Positions 1,211 to 64,000 of a stretch of DNA of 64,000 bases are shown here, in pieces. Position 1 is the stretch's first letter. Each line of letters starts with the position of its first letter. This stretch comes from Asterochloris sp. CNOR1 (lineage: Eukaryota; Chlorophyta; Trebouxiophyceae; Trebouxiales; Trebouxiaceae), in the NCBI GenBank assembly GCA_963969365.1, contig OZ017746.1, positions 1,736,001-1,800,000 of the forward strand, written 5' to 3'. Position numbers and translations under genes: made by a program. The notes beneath the pieces were generated by a model. The model was given only the letters and a program-made list of their open reading frames with translations. It ran no database searches and was not told where the DNA came from.

Positions 1211-4200
1211 TTACCTGCAGACAGAGGGACAGGTCTGATGCCATTGATCCAGCAAGCCATCTGCAGCTGTGGGACCAGACTGGTCCTCTCGCAACTTTAC
1301 CTCCAAGTAAGGTTTGAGGTGCAAGTCTCTGTGCAAGACCATCTTGGTCTCAATCCAGAGGTCGCCATGCCTCTGCTTGATACCTGCAACCAAAGGCAGC
1401 ACATGCAGATGCTGCCGCTCAGACTGTATGCACACCCACAACCTCATCAGATCTGCAACATCTATGGCACCTACCTGCCAGCGTCTGAATGTCCTCAATC
1501 ACCAGGCCTAGCGCAAGTGCCCAGCTGGTAATGTCCGCTGCAACGCAGGCCTCTAGCAGCATCTGGGCGTCCTCTAGCGCCGCTGAGTCGCCCACCACAG
1601 GCAGCTCAGCCGTTGCCGCAGCAAGAGCTGCACGGAGCAGGGGACGCATCTCAGGGCATGCATCAATCAAGCAACCTCCCAAATGAGCTTCAGCAGTGAG
1701 CATAGCGTCAAGTCTCAGCCCAGAAACAATGCAGCATCTGTGGCTCACCTGCAACAGCACCCCAGGCCCACAGCATTCCAGCAGCACAGTGAGCACGCGG
1801 TCAGCCAGGTCAAGCTTCACTCCATTGCACCGGTGCTTCAGCCTGCTGCAACCTACCTGACATCACGGCGAGGGCATTGAGCCCTGGCTCCTGAGGCGAG
1901 CGAGGCTGCTCCTGCACCGCCACCAGCAGGGAGCTGAGGTGGCCCCCAACAGTGACCAAAGCCCGCCCCAGACGAGCCAGCTCCCTGATGCGGTCATCCT
2001 CCAGCAGCTGCCCAGCGTGACAGGCAATGACCTGCCACCCGTCATGCCCTGGCTTGCCAGCAGCCCCAGCAGTGCCTGCCTGGTGGGCTGGCTGCTTGGG
2101 CTGCTGGGTGGCGGAGCTGCCAAACAGCCAGGAGGTCAGCCAACTGGACACCTGCGACCAGGACCACAGTGGCGGGCGCTGCAGGGGCTGCTGGACGTCA
2201 GCACTGCTACACAGCAGAAGGGCAGCCGGTGGACAGCTGGACCGCTTCAAAAGCCGTTCAGCGATGCAGCTGGAGCGGATTTAGAGATGCACTGACTGCG
2301 CAGCTGAGTCCAGTTGGCATTGCATGCATCGCCCATGCATGAGCAGGGCAGACATCGGTGCCTGTCCAAGAGCCGCTTACACACCTGATTGAAGGCGCAG
2401 CTGAGCGAGCTCAGCCCTCTTCAGCACAGCAGGTCACACAACCAAGGACAAGGCTGCCATGCCAGCTGCAGCCTCACCCCAGCCTCTTCCTGCCCCGCCA
2501 TGCCATTGGCGTGTGCCTCCGCGTTGTTCCCGCTGGGGCTCCCCAGGATGTCCTGGTCCTCAGGCGGGATGATGAAGCGCAGCAACTCGGCGGCCAGCTC
2601 AAACGCGCCACCCTCCAGAGCAGCCTGTGCAGTGAGACATCAGTCCCTGACTGATGTGGCCATGAGTTTGGAGCAGATGCATAACTGTGCAGTATTGGCC
2701 ATGCAGGTGGTGTGCCTGTGCAGCATTCCTTCTCATCACTGCAGACAGACAGCCGAGTCAGACTGTTACTCTGGTAAAACCTAGAAGCATCACCTTGCCA
2801 TGCAGCAGCAAGCAGTCACACGCCCAGGGGGCAGTCTTGGCAGACGTAGCAAGTGGCCAAGGGGCTCAAGGGGCGCCAGCAGCCAGCTGGAGGAAAGTTT
2901 CAAGCCTGCTTCACTCACCTGTATGAGCTGGAGGGCTCTGCCGTGCGCCGCCTGTGGGCCCTCTATCCTGTCCACAATGAGCAGGCAGCAGGCCGCGCTC
3001 TGCAGCATGCCTGCCTCCAGCAGGCTGTCCAGCATGCTGCTGGGGACCCCCACTGCTGCGAACAGGGCCGGCCACATCTGCGCATCCGTCTTGCGTGCCA
3101 CGCTGACAACTACATCACGATTCTGGGGGAACTGGCGCACCAGCTGGGCTGCTGCCTGCAGCAGGGGACCTGCAGGGCGGCGCATGCCAATGCTCTGGCT
3201 GTGCACTCTGATCAAGCGTCACGCAGTCAAACAGGGCAGCAAATGGACACAGCAGTGTTGCAGAGCATCTTCAACCTGCCCCCAGCACTGGCCAGCTTTC
3301 AAGCGCTGCACGTGCGCCAGAGAAGTCAACTGCTGCTGCTGATCATAGCTCGGCAGTTGAGGTGATGCAGCAGGGAAGTGCCACCTGCATGTGTGTTTCG
3401 CCTGCGCTTTCCGGAGGCCTTAGGCCCTGAGCGGCCCTCAGATGCCCACTGCTCCAGCATGCCAATGTTCTGGCTGTAGCTGCCCCCCATGGCTGCCTGG
3501 GCCCTGCAATGCCGCAGGCAGACTCGAGGCGCAGCCTGCCAACGCCATGTGTTGTGCAGTGTCATGGGGGATGACTTCCAGAAGCCTGTGCCCTGTTGCA
3601 CCTGACCTGCCCAGCCAGCGCAAAGGCAGAATGGCAGGTGTGCTGAGCATCGTGGCAAACCCTTGGGGCAGCACATCACTCTGAGAAACACTTGTGCGCA
3701 ATAGACTGCGCCCCACCTGGGTTTGCAGGGCACAACCTCATCATTATTGATCTCCAGGGCGGTGAACAGCAGCCACTCCAACGACCGTGCAAAGTGGGGG
3801 GCCTCGCAGTGGCGCGCTGCCAGGGACATGGCTGCGCCATCCTTGCCTTGCTGCAGCAGGCGCCGCAGCAGGCAGGGCAGCACTGGCTGGGATTCAGGCA
3901 GGGGGTGGAAGCAGGGGAGGGTGGACCGCGCCGCAAGCTGCTGGCTGCGGGCAACCCTCTGGGTCACCCCTGCAGGCGCACATGTGATCCTGAGAAGGGA
4001 AGTCTATTTCAGCAGCGCATGTGCACATCTGAAGCAGAAGCTGGCTTGCAGCAGTAAGAATGAGATGTCTCACGGCATGACGAGATGCCCACAGCATGGG
4101 ACATTCCGGCAATGCTCTGAGAGCAATGCCAACTCCAGCCAACCTTGGGTTGACTAAGCAGCCTCATGGATGATCTGCACCTAGAAGGGTGTGCGCATTG

Positions 4201-7200
4201 ATGGTTCAGCTGCTCACCAATGATGGCCACCTCAGCTATTGAGATGCCAATGGGGTACACCTCGCGGTCAAACTCCAGCTCCGGGTCGGTGCTGATGGTG
4301 CTCATGGCCTCCCGGGTGGAGGGGGACAGGGGCTCAGCCAGGGAGGAGGGGAACCACATCTGCATCCCCTGTGGCCCATACGTCCACCAGGGGATCTCCA
4401 CCTCAGCCTGGCCTGCAGACAGCCAGGGCCATGTCTTCATGCAATGCTACACCACCAGAGGGTGTCCACCCCAGCCTGGTCTGCAGTGGGCCAGGGTGTG
4501 CTGCCTGCGCAGTCCGCGCTGTGGGCATTCTGCACGCAATATGGAAGCAGGGAGGCCATAGTTATATTACAGATTTTGACTGAGCTGCTGCAGGGGGCTG
4601 CCATACTTGCTGCTACTGCCACTCACAACAAAGAAGTACGCCGCCTGAGATACAGCGGGTGTCTGGCCTCAGGTTGTGCATGTCATGCAGGGCAGAGTCA
4701 TGCAGCCTGAGTGGAGAAATTGACAGTGCTCCCCAAGGTATATGCAGACTGTATCACCTGCCGAGCTGGCTGCATCGGTGACGCTGTCGTCAAGGGAGAC
4801 CTGACTGCCGTGGCGCTTTTCCAGCTGCGGCACAGGCATTCTGTGGGAGTCGTTCCTGCCGCTCGTGCTCGTCCCAGGTTGCTGCCGTGCTGCAGGGTCC
4901 AGCTGAGGTGTCCACTGCGCGGAGACCTCCCCCGAGTAGGACGTCCTAAGGGACTGTGATGTGGTCACTGCACAAGCAACGGGAATGAGAGCAGGGGGGT
5001 GCATCATGGCAAGCTTGCTTATTGCCACACAGCTTGCTCCTGCTGTGCTGTGGTCACTGCACAGGCAGCGGGCATGAGCCAGGGGTTGGAATACAGTGGG
5101 CTTGTTGCTGCTGTGCACCTCTGTGGCGTGAGCTGGCGCTTCAGCAGGTTTGCAAGGCTGCCTGGCACCCAGCGACTTCAATGCTGGGCAGCATCGTGAC
5201 CCCTGTGCAGCGCTCACTTGATGCACCACTCTGCTGCCGGGACAGCTGAGCGCCCTGTGCGCTCTGCAGGCGCGAGGCAAAGGTTGCACTCTGCTGCTGA
5301 GCCCAGGGCGAGGGCCCTGCCAGCCAGAAGCACTCTATGTCCTCTGCCAGCGGAGTCTCTGAGCCTGTATCACCATGAAGTCGGGCTGCAGTGAGGTAGT
5401 CTCAGGTCCCTGCCCAGCTCTGTGGGGATGCTTATCTTTCTGCGGCCTTTCTCTCGGCACGTGACAGCCTGTCAGCTTGGCATGAAACGTGTGGTAGGTC
5501 CCAATGGAGCACATCTACCCCAGCCATCACCTGCTACTGCAATGATAGCTACAAGCTGCATGGACCTGCAAATGCTGAAGTTGCTTCTGCAGCAACAGTT
5601 GCCTGCAGGCCTGCCCCTCACCTTTGTCCATGTCCAGCAGGCTCATCAATCCACCAGCCCGCAGCAGCACGCAGTGCCGGGGAGTGAGGTCCCCAGCATC
5701 GACAAGTGTGTCTGTGCCCAAGGGACCCGCCCTTGGCTCAACCAAGGCAATGTCCTGCACAGCCAGAACCACTGTGCAGGTCAGCTTGATGTACCTTTGT
5801 GTGGGGCACCAGGGCACAGCATACTGGGCAGCATACAGCCATGCACAGCGAGGCAAGCTTGCAAGCAGGCCGCTGCATGGACCTGCAGCTCATTTGACAA
5901 AGCAACATCTGCCTGTCCTGCTGGCAAAATCGTGGACAGAGCTTGTGCATGCATGGGCGCGCCCCGACTCACCACAACTGGCTGAGCAGAGGTCATGATG
6001 GAGAGCTCCCTGACCACAGTGACTGTAGCTGTGGGAGTTCCCAGGGGAGTCAGCTGCCCGGACAGATCAATGCGCAGGACACTGACGTCCAGAGGGGCAT
6101 AAGCAATCTGGATGAAGTTGCCCAGAGCATCCATGGCCACAGGTGTCTACACAAGCAGCAGCATCAACACGGTAGTGGCATAAAAATCTTGCATGCTGCA
6201 GCAACAACAAGCTCCCTTATGCTACAGCAGCTTTGCAGGCAACAGCCTGCCCCACCCAGGCAGCGATTGCGGGCTGGCCTTAGCGCAAGACTGTGGACGT
6301 GCTGGAGCAGCAGGCATGACAAATTGCTGACTTGATATATGCACACAGACATGGGCAGCAAGCACAGAGAGGCACCCCGGGAAAGCAGCATGCAGGCCCA
6401 CCTGAACAAGAGAATATCTGGCTAAGAGTGAGGAGTTGTCCAGGTGATACCGTGGGTAGAGCAGCAGCTGGCAGCCAGCCTTGTCGCCCTTCTTGGCACC
6501 TCCTATCAGGGCACAGGCCACCACAACCCTTGGCAGCCATAGCAGAGTCTGCATGCCAGCAAACACTTTGACAGCTGCAGGCGATGCAGAGCAGATGTGG
6601 CGCTATCAGGCCAATCAGTGTAGTCCAATATCAGGGGCTTGACAGTCTGTGCTGGTGTAGTGCCAATGGCAGCTTGCAGTCTCATGATGTGGCAAGGAGT
6701 CCCTGACATTGCACTACACAGTTAGGAGCATGGCTCAGCACCTATCGGTGCTTTCAAGTGGTCTGTAATGCTGCAGGAGAATCTTCGTTTTGTCATGCAC
6801 ATCAGGAAGCAGTGTATTCAATGATGGCTGTGAAGCCAGGGTGCCCTTCTGCTCACAAGCATGCCCCACCTGCACAGCCACACTCCTCTCCTGTGAGATG
6901 TCCCCAAAGAGGCGCCACCGGGCGCTGCGGCGGCTGTAAAGGGCCAGGCCCTGAGTTCCAGCCACTGCCACATCCATGCCGTCTGAGCTAAGGGCAGCGT
7001 GCACCAGGGGCCAGCTGCTGCTGATGTACTGCTGGGGTAGCCTGAGGTGGTGGACTACCAGGTCGGGGCTCAGCCCCTCACGGCTGGGTCCAGAGACGGC
7101 AGCCACAGGGTTGGCTGAGATGCTGCCCTGGGTGATGAGCAGCAGGCGGTCGCTGCCCTGCACCGCAGTGTTGCATGCACTTCAACAGAGACCGCACAGA

Positions 7201-56200: not shown

Positions 56201-56960
56201 GCAGTCATTTGTCTCATCCAGGTCACCCCATTCCAGATCAGCACAGCTGCCTGTTGTGTGATGTGCCTGTATGATGATTCAAGTCACTCCTGGCAGATGC
56301 TGCAATGGACGACAGGGCCGGCAGTGCTGTGCACAGTCCTGCAGCCCGGCCCAGACAGGTCTGCTGTGCCTCGTGTTGCACCGGAAGGTCAGCCGCAACA
56401 ATGTGCCTGTGCTCGACTACAAAACAGGAGGGGTGGCACTTCTGTATTGTTGCCTGTTGTTTGAGCTGGCATGGAGCTGAAACGCAGCCTCGATGCTGCA
56501 GGGACAGTGTTCGGGGGGACCGGTACGGCAGCAGCAGGTCCTCCCGGGAGGGCAGGTCTGACCGGGATGGCAGGTCTGACCGAGACTACAGGTGCACAGC
56601 CATGTCAGGCTCAGCCTGGCACATTGCCATGTAGCAGCTGCCCTTAGCCAAACAGTCCGTTGGTATTCCTGCATGGCTGTTGCATGTCCTTGTCTGGCCT
56701 TGCGTGGTGCCCATGGACAGGTGGCTGGTGCTAGGCTGACACATGAGCCTCCACCCACAGCACAAGGCAGCCACTGCATGCCTGCAAGTGTGATGCTGGT
56801 CTTGGTGCACATAGCCCAGTGCCCCCTGGAGAAGCACCCTCAGATGTTGATGTGCTGACGCAGACGACGCAGCAGGTCGCGGGAAAGGCACAGGGACCGC
56901 GGCAGGGAGCGTGAAAAGGCATATGATGACAGTCACCGCAGCAGCCGCAGCTACCACTAA
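53298..56960 (+). CDS. LUC7-like U1 snRNP-associated splicing factor (LUC7L3 type)
   Basis: LUC7 proteins sit in U1 snRNP and help choose 5' splice sites. Seven exons join in phase: 53298-53466, 53816-53906, 54166-54316, 55202-55411, 55786-55988, 56502-56591 and 56864-56960, giving 336 residues. The N-terminus MDETRAMLDELMGRDRN matches LUC7L3 (LLDELMGRDRN). Zinc finger 1 has C36, C44, C59 and H64. A helical region (HGYERELLSLLSQLVRDMNR...) leads to zinc finger 2, VCEVCGVF with C190 and C193, then DHLEGKQYLGW. In that finger the second zinc His is replaced by Tyr215; the first, H209, is kept. The tail is short and Arg/Ser/Asp-rich (SDRDGRSDRD, RRRSRSRERHRDRGRERE). TGTAA at 57037 is a possible poly(A) signal. 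Intron 3 is packed with decayed copies of the exon 3 end. Confidence 0.92.
54301..54715 (+). repeat. Array of decayed exon-end/donor copies in LUC7 intron 3
   Basis: The real exon 3 end is GGAGGCCATCAAG|GTGAGGGGC at 54304-54325. Related copies follow at about 54388 (GGAGGCCAGCAAG|GTGAGGGGC), 54489 (GGCCATCAAG|GTGAGGGGC), 54587 (weak) and 54686 (GGAGGCCAGTCACGAAG|GTGAGAGG), spaced about 85-100 bp. The flanks are also related (TTGCAGATCC or CTGCAGATCC). Confidence 0.8.
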
Positions 56961-57155: not shown

Positions 57156-60100
57156 TCAAGAGTCCTCAGCACGGGCGGCAGCTCGTGCCTTGGCCTCAGT
57201 GCGCTTCTTTTGACTGCTGCTCATAACAGACTTGGCTGGGCCAGTCTGGCCAGACGATTTCTCATCATCATCGCCCTCGTCGTCTGAGACTTCTGGTGTG
57301 ATGTGCCCAGGTGTTTCAGTGGGGCTCCTCACACTTGCTGCACGCCAAGTGTGTCAAGTTGGCCTGGTGTTTTAAAGCTACATGGGCTATGCTTATGGTC
57401 AAGGCAAGGGTGTCAAGGCAAGCTTGGGCAGAGAGGCCTAGATCTGAGCTCAAGACTGACCTGCCTGGGCAGGCTCAGACTAGGGATGGTGGGCCTATTA
57501 CCCTGCAGGTATGTGGCGTTCAGGGCGGGTGCAAATGGTGCACAGAGCATTGGAAGACACTGCCTGCCAATGTTGCACAATGAACAAAGGGCTGTGCACA
57601 AGGGGCTACCAACACAGGACTGCTTGCACAGGGCTCACAGCAAGGACATTGGCAGTGCAGGGAGCTGTGTGCAACTGCCCCATCAAGCAGACAGGAGGGG
57701 GGGTTGGTCTGCAATTTGATGGCAGCAGCTCTCACCTGCTGGCTTCTTCAACTGCACCTCGTCCTTGGGCACGCTCTTTGCTGCTGCAGCCTCAGCCAGC
57801 CTCTCAGCGTCCTTGTCCTCACGCTTGGCCTTCAGATCCTGCACCAAACTTACATCCACCAGGCTCAGCCTTCAGGTGCTGCCCCCGCAGTAGGCATTCT
57901 GCTTCTGGTGCCGCTCCTGAGCATAGCAGCCCCTCCCCTGTGTGCCACTGGATACCACGTGCATGCAGCAAATGCAGGCGGCACCCCACAGGACTGCAGA
58001 CAGTGCAAGGCGAGACATGCAGGTGACCAATGCTTAGGTAGGTCTCCGTTCAAACAGGCAGTGCAGGCAGGGGCCCCACCTGGAGATTATTGGTCCAGGC
58101 ACTGGTGGCTAAGTTGGCTGCAGCGTTGCTGCCCCTGGACGCTGCTGGCTGTGCAGCAGAGCGGCCACCATCAGGCGCATCGCCTTCACCATCCTGCAGC
58201 AGCACATCTGCAGATGCAGCGCAGCCAGCACCCATGGGCACAACCAGGAGCTGCCAGGCTGCTACCCCCCGATTGCAGGAGGAGGCATGATGAGTCATAG
58301 ACGCTGGAAGCGGGTGCTGCTCTTCGGGTGCAAGCAATGCATCACTTGGGCAGTTTGCCCTGTGCAGAAAGAAGGTGGCCACTGCTGGCGCACCTGGCTG
58401 CTGCGCTCCTGAGCCCAGGACGCCGCCTGAGTCACCAGGTTGCGTGCCTCGGGGCTGTAGGGCTGCACCTGGATGCTCGCGCGGGCGTCCTTGGGGGGAC
58501 GGTTGCGGGCCAGGGTTGTCACCCCCTGACTGTCCAACTCTGGGTTGGAGGGCTCATGTTCAGCATTAGGGCCGCTGCTCTTGGCAGCAGCAGTGTTGCT
58601 GGGGCTACTGCTGCTGCTGCTGGCCCCAGAAGCAGCCTGAGCAGCCCCCGCAGCCTCCCTGCCATTGCCTGCACCAGCCGTGGAGCCAAGCGAGGAGGTG
58701 CTGCCCTTGCTGCTGCTGGGGGCAGCTGCGGAGCCCTCTCTGCCTGGCTCCGCAGCTATGTTGCTGCTGTCGCTGTCAGCTCCCCTGCTGCTGCTGCCGT
58801 CAGTCCGCTTGCTGCTCCCGCCGTCAGCCGCCTTGCTGCTCCCCCCCTCAGCAGCAGCAGGCACAGGCTGGCTGCCCTGCAAGCCTGATGCGCCCTTCCT
58901 GTTGCTGGTGTTACTACCCCCAGCAGCACCAGCCGCCGCCACGCTGCCCTGCCTGCCGCTGCTGAGGCGCGTAAGGGCAGCCCCATCCCTAGGCACCTGC
59001 TCCTGCTCCAGGGAGGACGAGCTGCTGCGCTGCCGCTCAAACAGGTCCGCGGCAGCAAACGCTGCGGCAGCCCGCGCCGTGCCACTGTTGCTGCGACCGA
59101 CCGGAAGCAGGGACTCCTGCACACCCGAGCTAGACCTCGCGCTGAGTGGCTGCACCTCGCTGGAGGGCACCCTCGCCCCCTCCTGCACACACCGACAGCA
59201 CCAGCCACCTTGGAGGGTCAAAAGGTGTGGTTAGGGGCTGCAGCCTGCCGGAAGGCAGCTGTGCCCTTTGCTGCAGCCGTCAGAAGTGGCATCAGCACAA
59301 GCACTGAATAATGCATGTACAGCATGTACCACAGGTCTGCCGTCTCTGCATGTTACATGAAGGCAGGGTGTCATCAGGTCTGACCTGCAGGCCACTGCTG
59401 CCACTGGCCATGCTCCAGGCTTAAGCAGACAGACAAGCAAAGTGGTCACAGGTGTCCTGCCTGCACTCATGGGCCGCTGCAGGCCTGACCTTGAGGAGCT
59501 CACATGGACCAGCCCCAGATGCAGCTGTCGCACCTGCATCCCCAAGCCGCTGCTGGCCTGGCTGCGCAGCGCCGACAGGGCCCCCTGCTTCCCGGTTGCG
59601 GTCCCAGAAGGGGCTGCCTGAGGTGAGCCCGCCCTCGCCTTACTGGCTGCAGACAGCGCGTCGCCTGTGATCTGCTTGGCTGCCCGCTGCGCTTCGGCAC
59701 CGTCCTCAGCGCTGGACGGCTTGCTGCCCTCAGCAGGCGCCTTGCCAGCACTGGCACCAGACTGGCTGCTGTCCTCTGTTGGGGCCTTGCCAGCCCCAAC
59801 TCCAGCCCCAGCACCTGGTGCCCTGCCAGCCGGAGCGTCATCGGCAGCAGCCCGCTTGCTGCTGAGCGCATCAGAGGCGGCAGCCGCCTTGTCAGCAGCT
59901 GACGGCTGCTTGCTGCCGGCCTCGGCAGCGCCAGCGGGTTCCCCGTTTCTCTCAGCAGCACCAGAGGGCTTCCCACTCCCCTCAGCAGCCCCCGACTGAC
60001 GGCCACCTCCCTCAGCAGCACCAGGCGGCTGGGCAGCGGACGGCTTGGCCTCAGACGCAGCCGGGCTGGGTGCAGGAGACTTGGACTCGCTCTCAGCCTT

Positions 60101-63100
60101 CTGGGGTGCAGCACCTGGCGGTGATGCCCTCTTGCTGGCCCTCGGCTCAGGGGCCGCAGGACCCTGGGCCTCAGCAGCGGGGGCAGAGCTTGATGGCGCC
60201 TGCCTCTGCTGCTTGGAGGGGTCCTGCTCACCAGCAGGCTTGGCGGCCGTAGCCTTTTCGAGCGCAGGCGACCCAGCATCTGGCGTCTCAGCAGGTGCCT
60301 GGGGGGTCTCCAGCTCCACCTGCAGGACACAAGCAGACTGACTGGTTGCAGATGTTTTTCAGAACACAGGAAGGAGTAGAGAGGTCACTGAGAACGAATG
60401 GGTCCGCTGGACACGGCACAAACAGCAAGGCTGTCTATGCTGTGAGGCAATGGTGGTCAGCTGCATGAACACAGCGTGGTGGACCAGTGTGCACCCAGTC
60501 ACGCCCCTGCAGAGGGGCTGTCATCATGACCGGACCCCTGGGGTGGCCCTGTTGCAGATGCCCTGCCTCTCTAGAACACCCAAGAAATGCCCATTCAGAC
60601 ACAGTGGTGACTGCGCAACTGATACCACGCAGTCCAGCAGCATCAGCCCGACAGGATGTTGGGCTGACCCAGGCTGCCTGCTTGGAGCTGTCCTGCAGGA
60701 GCTGACCACTCTGCAGCCGACCCACACAGCCCCAGGCAGCTTGGTAGCTGCACACTTGACGTTTGAGCTGGCCCTGTCACAGCCGCACCTGTACAGAGCG
60801 CAGTCCGATGAGTTCCCACCACCCTATCACAGCCAGAGCTGACCTGAGCAGGCTCCTGGGAGCTGTCCTGCCTCTTCGCCTGCGCTGCCTTGCTGGGGCT
60901 TGACGCTGATGTCTCCTGCTTGGGTTTGGGGGGTGCCTGAGGCTGCCGCAACTCCGTCGGCCTCGAGGGGCTGGGTTGCGGACTCTGCTGTGCCTGCCCC
61001 TGGGCCCTGCAGGGGCTGGGCAGCCTCAGAGGCTGCAGCATCCAATAGTGTCAGAAGCAGCGGGTGTGAATGCTGGCCACCTGGGCGACCACAGGTCAGG
61101 GCCACCATGCAGGGCAGGACCCCCTGTGGGGGCCTCCAGAGGGGCCAGAAGGGGCAGCGTCAGCTGGGGCTCCACCGTCATGCAGGGCTGCCAGCAAGAC
61201 CAAGCACAAGCCAGAAGCAAGGACAGTCACAGGTTCACCTGGGCTGCTCAGGGGAGGCTGGCAGGGAGAGGCTGTGTCCCACAGGAGACCTTGAGCGCGG
61301 GGTGGGCGGACGGCTGCGCCCAATGACATACTCGCCCGGCTGGGAGTAGATCAGGTGCTCTGTCTCGTGCTCGTTCACGCGGAAGCCCCTGCAAGCAGAG
61401 TGGCTTTGGATGTGAGTTGACTGCCTTGCAAGCGTGCAGGGATGTAAGCAGCCTTAGATTTGACCGGCACAGCTTGCCGGGAGTGCAGCGCGAGGGAGCG
61501 GGGCTGGGGTTGTGCCTAGTCCAGCCCACACAGCACAAGAGGAATTTTGCTCACACCCACACAGCAGCAGTGCGCCCATGCATGATCACTGGCCGCCAGG
61601 GCATGAGTGCCGCAGGCGGGGCCCCATGAGGGGTTCAGCCTTTGTTAGATTGCAATGCAGGCAAGGATGCGGGGGAGTCCATGGGAGGTCCCCTGCCACT
61701 TGCGACATGGGGTTTGGGGGCTTTTACCTCATGCGCTCCTCCTCAGTGGCCTGGTCCCCCTCGCGCACAGCCTCCCACTCCCACCCCTTCCGCTGCACCA
61801 CACGCATCTGCTCAATGTTGATGTAGGCCTCAGGCGTCCTGCAGGCAGGGGCAGCATAGGGCCTCGGGCAGCGGGCAGGGGCAGGGGCAGGGCATGGCCG
61901 CAGCACCTCGGCACGGAGGATTGGGGTTGCCTCTGCAGGTCAGGGCAGCTGCTCAGGCTGATTTGGTTCGGACTCATCAGCAGCACAGCAGCCATGTGAG
62001 AAGCTGTTGTGAGCCTCCTGCAGACAGGGTAGCAACGGGCCCTCGGGCAGCAGGCTGGGGACAGCTACGCCTGTGCACACAGGGGCCTCTGCAGATTGGG
62101 AGCAGCTGTCCAGCCAATTGCTTCTTGCAGGAGGTCAAAGCATCTCGTTATTGCAGCCAGCCCAGCGTCGAACAGCACTGCAGTGGCAGCGTCGAGAGAT
62201 AGTACCAGGCGCCACTGCTACACAACAGAGGGCTTACTTGGCCTCAATGACGAGCGCCCCTGCCAGCTCCAGCTTGTGGAGGGTCACCTCTGCTGCCTCC
62301 ACCACCAGGGCAGCATTGCGACTGATGTGCACATCCTGGGGCTCAGGCAGCCGATGCTGCAGCCAGAGTGAAGGGGTTCGTGTAGTAGAGAGGGGAGAGT
62401 GAATGCAACAGGCCGCCGCAGCGCTGCAGCTGATGTGCATCTCCCAGGCCTCAGGCAGCCGGTGCTGCAGCCAGAGCGGGACCGGGGGGGAGCAGGAGAA
62501 GGGCGGGCAGCTGACGCGACCTGTGCAGGGCAGGTCTGATGCAGGCCGCACAAGCTGTGGCTCAGGCAGGATAGTGCAGGGGGTTGACCATGCCTGCAGT
62601 ACAGCCTGGTGGCCTTCTGCTGCTTGCAGGCGCAGTGCTCACCCTCAGGTCATCAAATGTCAGCGCAAAGAGGGGGGTCCAGCTGACTCGAGGGTACAGC
62701 TCTACATCCAAGCCATTGAAGGTGGCATCCACTGGGCCATCCACGTCTGCACCCACCAGCTGCAGCGATCTGCAGTCACGGAACACTCTGAAGCAAGTGG
62801 TCTCACACTTCAATAGAAGACCGTACCAGTAGACTTCAAAGCCCATCAGTGACCAGACGGTCAACTTGTTCTGTCACGCTAGACCATTTCAGCCATGTGT
62901 CTTGCAGGCAGGCTCCATAGCTCAGAGCCCTTCCCAGCCGTGCTCAGATAGGGTGACCTGCCTGCGGTTGGTCTAGTAATCCAGCAGGACGCACAACTCG
63001 CACAGGAGTGTGGCAGCCTGACAGCTTGCCTGCAGTTAGTCTTATATATGTCCAGCTCCCCAGTCGTGGCGCTGTGGCTTGGGCCGCCCGCCTTGGCCTT

Positions 63101-64000
63101 GGCCAAGGCATCTGCTGGGGAATTTTTCACCGGCGAGTAGGTGCTCCACACCTGCGCAGGGGCAAGAGCGGAGGGCTCAGCGGGTGGCCGCAAGAGGCAC
63201 AGCACCAGGCACTGCAAACACACACTGCCACCAGCCTCAGCCCATCCGCATTGGGGAGCTGGCACTGTGCAAACATGAGACGACCACATCAAGTCGTACC
63301 TGAGTGTCACCTGTGAAGCCCATGACCCGACTCCAAGCTGTATCTCAGTGACTATGACGACTTGGGGGGTAATCATGAGCCCATGCTGGCAAAGCTGCCC
63401 AACATGGTTCTGCAGAAGCCGACAGCATGGGCAGGTCCTGCCCAGGCTTAGCTGCCTGACCCACCTGGTTGACGACAGTGAAGCCAATAGCAGCTGAGCT
63501 GCCCAGGGCCTTGGGGTAGTCCTGCATCATGCACTCCAGGCGCGTGCTGCTCTTGAAGGTCGTCTTGGAGGCGTCTTTGTACTTGGGATTGATAAACTCC
63601 GCGATTAGGCCCCGCGTGCGCGACAGGGAGGTGGCATAGGAGCTCATCTTGAGAATGAATTGGTTGATGTTGCCTGCAGTCATAGACAGCTCAGCTACGC
63701 TCAGCACAGGGCATACCTGTTCTCCTGGCGAGAATGACACTAAGTGATGGCCATGTGTGTAGCTTCAGCTAGCCTGGCTGGGCTGCAGATGCTGCCTTTA
63801 GGCACATGCAGGGTCAGCTGATTGAGAGCACAATCTTCCTGCATGCAGAGAGGATGAGAAGCTGTTGGTCTGTATGGCAGGCAGGCTCTCACCAGGGAAG
63901 GGGGACCACCCGCTGTCATCGTTGACGTCCCCTTCAGGGCTGACCGTGGCCCGCAGCAGGGGATCCAGCTGATTGTACTCCACATTGATGGTCATGCTGC
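57156..64000 (-). CDS. USP: UDP-sugar pyrophosphorylase, 3' part, with long disordered C-terminal tail
   Basis: USP converts sugar-1-phosphates plus UTP to UDP-sugars. The 5' half lies right of the window. Visible core exons: ending 63893 ([13 protein letters not shown]), 63673-63465 ([51 protein letters not shown]), 63151-63030 ([29 protein letters not shown] donor), 62787-62643 ([20 protein letters not shown]), about 62357-62240 ([16 protein letters not shown]), an exon ending near 61728 ([18 protein letters not shown]) and 61388-61290 ([18 protein letters not shown]), where plant USP normally ends. The frame continues in phase through 61006-60844, 60319-59534, 59182-58394, 58193-58080, 57838-57736 and 57292-57156, adding about 700 residues rich in Ala, Ser, Pro, Gly and Gln with a basic end. 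The core is certain; the tail is inferred from six consecutive phase matches. A separate gene with an unseen start is the alternative. Confidence 0.85.
62313..62480 (-). repeat. Decayed copy of an exon start in a USP intron
   Basis: On the minus strand the exon start CTCTGGCTGCAG|CATCGGCTGCC (at about 62371) has a diverged copy 109 bp upstream at 62420-62480, with CTCTGGCTGCAG|CACCGGCTGCC followed by a similar GATGTGCACATCAG-like stretch. The copy drifts out of frame. Confidence 0.75.

What the first reader, a model, noticed from the sequence alone, without database searches (positions are those of the whole stretch)
57156..61388. UDP-sugar pyrophosphorylase appears to carry a ~700-residue disordered C-terminal tail
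Seen: after the exon that ends the normal USP fold ([11 protein letters not shown]), six further exons on the same strand join with correct phase at every junction (phase 2, 0, 0, 0, 0, 1) to one stop at 57156. Known: plant USP ends about where 61388-61290 ends. Inference: the enzyme has a large Ala/Ser/Pro/Gln-rich extension ending in an acidic patch (SDDEGDDDE) and a Lys/Arg-rich terminus ([14 protein letters not shown]), perhaps for condensate formation, scaffolding or nucleic-acid binding. I recall no such USP architecture.
Basis: partly seen in the sequence, partly recalled or inferred. Interest (0 to 1): 0.78.

Follow-up and report, generated by a model that had tools for sequence, protein, structure and literature searches.

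The report
Sugar-activating enzyme with long floppy tail
In this alga the gene for a common sugar-activating enzyme seems to continue, past the enzyme's normal end, into six more coding pieces that add a tail of about 700 residues with no fixed shape; the pieces look like real coding sequence, but only RNA data can show that they are made as one protein with the enzyme.

Summary
The minus-strand gene is UDP-sugar pyrophosphorylase (USP): 594 residues aligning almost end to end with solved MbUSP (E 2.8e-176). Three bacterial USPs stop within about one residue of this point; here the same exon runs on for 26 more codons. Exons then lead to the stop at 57156; the last probably starts at 57337, giving about 1332 residues with a tail of about 738. 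The tail chain scores 162 bits against at most 67.2 in 600 shuffles. Its two large exons hold the only two weakly hydrophobic, charged 200-residue stretches found in 240 kb. Against: three of six tail acceptors are weak, and the chain scores nearly as high in other phases, so the link to USP rests on the junction signals and the lack of an early start codon. One fused protein: 0.75. No transcript or other alga could be examined. Condensate, scaffold or nucleic-acid roles are guesses.

The parts
63893..64000 (-). USP exon 7, the part inside the window (it continues to 64105 in the neighbouring sequence, L008); exons 1-6 lie beyond the window
63465..63673 (-). USP core exon 8
63030..63151 (-). 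USP core exon 9, with a GC donor
62643..62769 (-). USP core exon 10
62238..62356 (-). USP core exon 11
61728..61838 (-). USP core exon 12
61239..61388 (-). Exon 13: end of the USP fold ([11 protein letters not shown]) plus 26 further Pro/Ser/Arg-rich codons, then donor ccag|GTGAAC
   Evidence: donor 11.5 bits; without USP introns 10.2
61007..61238 (-). Intron 13, 232 nt. If it is not removed, the frame meets TGA at once (61236-61234), giving a 621-residue form. This holds for any phase-2 GTGA donor and is not special.
60844..61006 (-). Tail exon 14, Gln/Pro/Ser-rich
   Evidence: acceptor 11.3, donor 9.0 bits
59534..60319 (-). Tail exon 15, 262 codons, with four GAAE units at steps of 10 residues
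   Evidence: acceptor 15.1, donor 7.9 bits; repeats; donor 59504 is an alternative
58394..59182 (-). Tail exon 16, 263 codons, Ala/Ser/Gly-rich, without Met
   Evidence: acceptor 8.3, donor 11.0 bits
58080..58193 (-). Tail exon 17 (58207-58169 is the alternative that the free search chose)
   Evidence: acceptor 5.7, donor 10.7 bits; coding score -3.4
57736..57838 (-). Tail exon 18, charged and helix-prone ([21 protein letters not shown])
   Evidence: acceptor 4.1, donor 10.4 bits, coding 35.9 bits; helix propensity
57156..57337 (-). Tail exon 19 with acidic patch, basic end and stop codon
   Evidence: acceptor 3.2 bits when USP introns are left out

Best explanation
One 19-exon gene encodes a USP whose normal 594-residue fold is followed by about 738 residues of Ala/Ser/Gly/Pro-rich sequence (about 138 kDa in all). 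Shown by sequence: the USP fold, its usual end, coding-like exons in one consistent frame, and strong splice signals at the junction. Inferred: that the mRNA is spliced across intron 13 and that the tail is disordered. Guessed: the tail is a flexible tether on a normal USP, with short charged helix-prone pieces (in exons 16, 18 and 19) as docking points that place UDP-sugar synthesis near its users, for example wall or glycoprotein enzymes. If intron 13 is kept, a short enzyme of 621 residues results, so both forms could exist.
For: USP core E 2.8e-176 to MbUSP, all 13 exon matches in the genome at this one place. Donor 61239 at 11.5 bits and acceptor 61006 at 11.3 bits in matching phase, 10.2 and 11.2 with USP introns left out. 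Such a phased pair stands at 14 of 3588 open-frame stops, this one included. Chain 162.2 bits, 0 of 600 shuffles reach it. Two Met in the 713 residues from exon 14 on, at 316 and 691. The same exon runs 26 codons past the fold. Crude score: one gene +7.2 bits. Repeat arrays in the tail have periods 24 and 30 nt, multiples of three.
Against: No transcript. The total chain score hardly depends on the start phase (158.3 and 152.5 in the other two). With USP introns left out, the acceptors of exons 17-19 score only 1.8, 3.0 and 3.2, while 11 of 12 USP core acceptors score 5.7 or more. Exon 17 has a negative coding score. The score comparison is rough: the best two-gene reading comes to +3.3 bits if genes lie about 200 nt apart. 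No conservation test was possible.
Confidence: 0.75

Rival explanations
1. Two genes. USP ends at the TGA at 61236 (621 residues), and a second gene that starts inside what looks like intron 13 (ATG 61181 followed by a 74-nt intron, or ATG 61041) encodes a separate disordered protein.
For: Both starts join the tail frame in phase. ATG 61181 with donor 61081 (7.4 bits) scores 0.0 to +3.3 bits depending on the assumed spacing of genes, without any cost for the short intron. No gene is known that would argue against a stand-alone tail.
Against: One gene scores +7.2 bits; ATG 61041 scores -1.7 to -5.0. The 34 training introns are 178 to 714 nt long, so 74 nt would be out of range. The start contexts look poor (judged from recalled rules). 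The space between stop and acceptor is about 230 nt for a 3' end, a promoter and a 5' leader. The strong donor at 61239 would be unexplained.
Confidence: 0.18
2. The tail exons are not protein-coding; open frames in GC-rich sequence have been strung together.
For: Shifted frames are open too: exon 15 shifted by one base has no stop. Exon 17 has a negative coding score. Codon-based scores for such biased sequence lean on amino-acid make-up.
Against: 0 of 600 shuffles reach the chain score. Among 113 natural 4.2-kb segments of the window only 3 score higher, all overlapping one stretch at 11.8-18 kb. Exon 18 scores 35.9 bits in 103 nt. Exons 15 and 16 are the only stretches of their kind in 240,092 bases.
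Confidence: 0.05

Closest known systems
UDP-sugar pyrophosphorylase (MbUSP 9uml, 9umk; 3ogz, 3oh0)
   Same: Alignment over residues 11-593 of the 594-residue core
   Different: MbUSP ends one residue after the alignment (599 of 600), while this gene continues for about 738 residues
Diatom UGP/PGM fusion enzyme (PMC2173943, passages seen)
   Same: An enzyme of the wider UDP-sugar pyrophosphorylase group extended by gene fusion in an alga
   Different: There the partner is a second enzyme joined by a spacer of 8 to 25 residues; here no domain is found in the added part
EPYC1-type low-complexity linker of the pyrenoid (PMC5931566, passage)
   Same: Low-complexity protein sequence with repeats in a green alga
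   Different: No Rubisco-binding-type motif here (motif recalled, tested), only a short run of 10-residue units, and it is attached to an enzyme

Membership tests
UDP-sugar pyrophosphorylase | Sequence similarity to USPs over the whole fold, well above that to UGP and UDP-N-acetylglucosamine enzymes | tested here: met
   MbUSP E 2.8e-176, 3ogz 1.1e-88; best UDP-N-acetylglucosamine enzyme 2.3e-19, best UGP 2.7e-6; Pfam UDPGP 58.6 bits, cut-off 22
UDP-sugar pyrophosphorylase | Nucleotide-binding loop and other conserved stretches present | tested here: met
   [39 protein letters not shown] and [11 protein letters not shown] are present and align with MbUSP; their roles are recalled
UDP-sugar pyrophosphorylase | Protein ends with the fold (usual, not defining) | tested here: not met
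   Even the short reading runs 26 codons past the end of the fold; three bacterial USPs stop there
UDP-sugar pyrophosphorylase | Uses several sugar 1-phosphates with UTP | not testable with these tools
   Needs an enzyme assay
Enzyme-enzyme fusion | A second catalytic domain in the added part | tested here: not met
   No Pfam family at E 1 or better in the tail
EPYC1-type Rubisco linker | Rubisco-binding-type motif | tested here: not met
   0 matches of [DN]W[KR]..[LIVA] and of W[KR]..[LIVAM] in 738 residues; motif recalled
Intrinsically disordered region | Low hydrophobicity and disorder-promoting composition | tested here: met
   82 percent disorder-promoting, 9 percent order-promoting residues; 7.6 percent hydrophobic
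Intrinsically disordered region | No confident fold predicted | not tested

The most novel reading that the evidence does not exclude
A lineage of green algae has turned USP into a tethered or condensate-forming enzyme by adding a disordered tail longer than the enzyme itself, with splicing of intron 13 deciding between a free and a tethered form.
Probability: 0.15. Interest if true: 0.7.

Novelty: new variant of a known kind. Interest (0 to 1): 0.42.

Why it matters
USP makes UDP-sugars in the salvage pathway of plants (PMC5897480, passages). A tail larger than the enzyme would suggest that this step is held at a place or in an assembly, and the gene's form gives one clear test: is the tail on the protein or not? 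If it proves to be two genes, it is a useful warning about fused gene models in GC-rich algae.

Tried and rejected
A first training set took minus-strand matches in the wrong orientation; it was rebuilt, and the synonymous-codon scores are not relied on. In one search, 54 of 63 kinase, AAA and UGP matches were kept (9 with a stop dropped; the kinase on L013 was left out beforehand), plus 22 of 23 HSP70 exons used of the 74 matches listed. For introns, 22 of 26 gaps between matched exons were kept (one had no solution, three scored too low), plus 12 USP introns that I placed by eye.

Limits of the chain search: donors above 0 and acceptors above 3 bits only, with rough fixed costs. Its positive control over the USP core gave 184.8 bits but missed exon 9, shifted the start of exon 10 and added one false exon.

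Junction pair: a first count on a sample of stops found 0 of 94 and 0 of 89; the full count found 14 of 3588. Some of the 14 may be true introns.

Control enzymes: UGP, PGI, enolase and two PGK have a stop 5 to 34 codons after the domain match. This control is weak: in 4 of the 5 there is a donor of 5.8 to 10.9 bits before that stop, so their ends may be spliced too.

Polyadenylation: TGTAA (recalled as the green-algal signal) was not found within 900 nt after either stop, nor in the short stretches held after the two HSP70 stops, so it gives no evidence either way.

Relatives: two scans of viral contigs gave none. One scan of genome contigs gave three bacterial USPs, none with a tail. In the own genome the last part of the tail (160 residues) matched only its own locus and one 40-residue stretch at E 0.5, and exon 15 only itself; exon 14 and the first part of exon 16 were not searched. 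PDB: best E 0.98 for the last 175 residues. NCBIfam: none for the core.

Literature: the listings show no title or abstract start that describes a USP with such a tail. I read passages only of PMC5931566, PMC10470519, PMC2173943 and PMC5897480; most subscription papers are not held.

Full report
What was checked. The window is C1:1736001-1800000 of an unnamed 56.4 Mb genome in 21 contigs. The genome has chlorophyll a/b-binding proteins (31 exon matches), so it is a photosynthetic eukaryote; that it is a green alga is inference. I fetched 10 kb beyond the window and rebuilt the gene on the minus strand: 19 exons, 66962 to 57156 in coordinates continued past 64000 (start of the last exon revised).

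The enzyme. Residues 11-593 of the 594-residue core align with MbUSP at E 2.8e-176; 3ogz and 3oh0 follow at about 1e-88, the best UDP-N-acetylglucosamine enzyme at 2.3e-19 and the best UGP at 2.7e-6. Pfam UDPGP matches at 58.6 bits. A search of the own genome gave 13 exon matches, all at this place. MbUSP ends one residue after the alignment, and three bacterial USPs end 3, 6 and 2 residues after theirs, which is within about one residue of position 594.

The junction. Donor and acceptor models came from 34 introns: 12 of USP and 22 of two HSP70 genes and UGP. Acceptor 61006 scores 11.3; between 61340 and 60950 the next best is 3.2. Both donors are in phase 2, as 61006 needs. With USP introns left out the values are 10.2, 2.8 and 11.2, and the 12 USP core donors themselves range from -2.3 to 12.5. 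A phased pair this strong stands at 14 of 3588 open-frame stops in the window and 49 other loci, this one included. Exon 13 itself runs 26 codons past the fold before the donor.

The tail exons. The best chain after the junction scores 162.2 bits; 300 dinucleotide shuffles reach at most 38.6, 300 local shuffles at most 67.2, and the antisense strand at most 4.5. Of 113 natural 4.2-kb segments of the window, 3 overlapping ones score higher, so the region looks like a good gene. Three results go the other way. A chain begun in another phase scores nearly as high (158.3, 152.5), so the total says that the exons are real but little about their link to USP. With USP introns left out, the acceptors of exons 17-19 score only 1.8, 3.0 and 3.2. 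Exon 17 has a coding score of -3.4. The link to USP therefore rests on the junction signals, on the lack of a start codon early in the tail (Met at 316 and 691 of the 713 residues from exon 14 on) and on the 232-nt spacing. A crude comparison gives one gene +7.2 bits; two genes give -1.7 to -5.0 with ATG 61041 and 0.0 to +3.3 with ATG 61181 and a 74-nt intron, for assumed gene spacings of 200 to 2000 nt.

Nature of the tail. It has 82 percent disorder-promoting and 9 percent order-promoting residues, 84 K/R and 80 D/E, and 7.6 percent hydrophobic residues against 31.6 in the core. Four GAAE units stand at exact steps of 10 residues; the tandem arrays there have periods of 30 and 24 nt, multiples of three. 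Exons 15 and 16 hold the only two 200-residue stretches with at most 10 percent hydrophobic and at least 12 percent charged residues in 240,092 bases, both strands, from 54 partly overlapping sources. The three most helix-prone pieces lie in exons 18, 19 and 16. The tail matches no Pfam family, and the two parts searched have no second copy in the genome. Structure predictions of exons 15 and 16 did not finish.

Reading. Most likely one gene and one protein of about 1332 residues (0.75), with two genes as the main rival (0.18). What the tail does is a guess: a flexible tether with short docking helices. Conservation, the best test of function, could not be examined: the collections I could search held no algal genome besides this one.

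Noticed in passing
own genome C1:1702076-1705160, minus strand (L001-L006): A second UDPGP-family gene, with UGP-like exons, lies about 92-95 kb from the end of the USP gene on the same strand.
   Followed up: partly
L008 about 7930-6950, minus strand: Upstream of USP lies a gene whose spliced protein matches V-ATPase subunit F (PF01990, E 3.6e-24).
   Followed up: partly
L008 about 3500-6900, plus strand: A gene that looks like a MATE transporter (recalled) lies next to USP; a Pfam scan of one 63-residue piece found nothing.
   Followed up: partly
window 56480-56600, plus strand: An Arg/Ser/Asp-rich repeat stretch (18-nt period) on the opposite strand may be the end of a convergent RS-type gene; no Pfam match.
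   Followed up: partly
own genome C19:10167-10916 (L013): A kinase match over nearly the whole domain in an uninterrupted 713-residue frame on a 43-kb contig, unlike the intron-rich genes seen elsewhere; possibly a contaminant.
   Followed up: no
own-genome introns, for example 61839-62237: Acceptors are almost always TGCAG (position -5 to -1 at about 0.9 each over 34 introns), a useful rule for gene models in this genome.
   Followed up: yes
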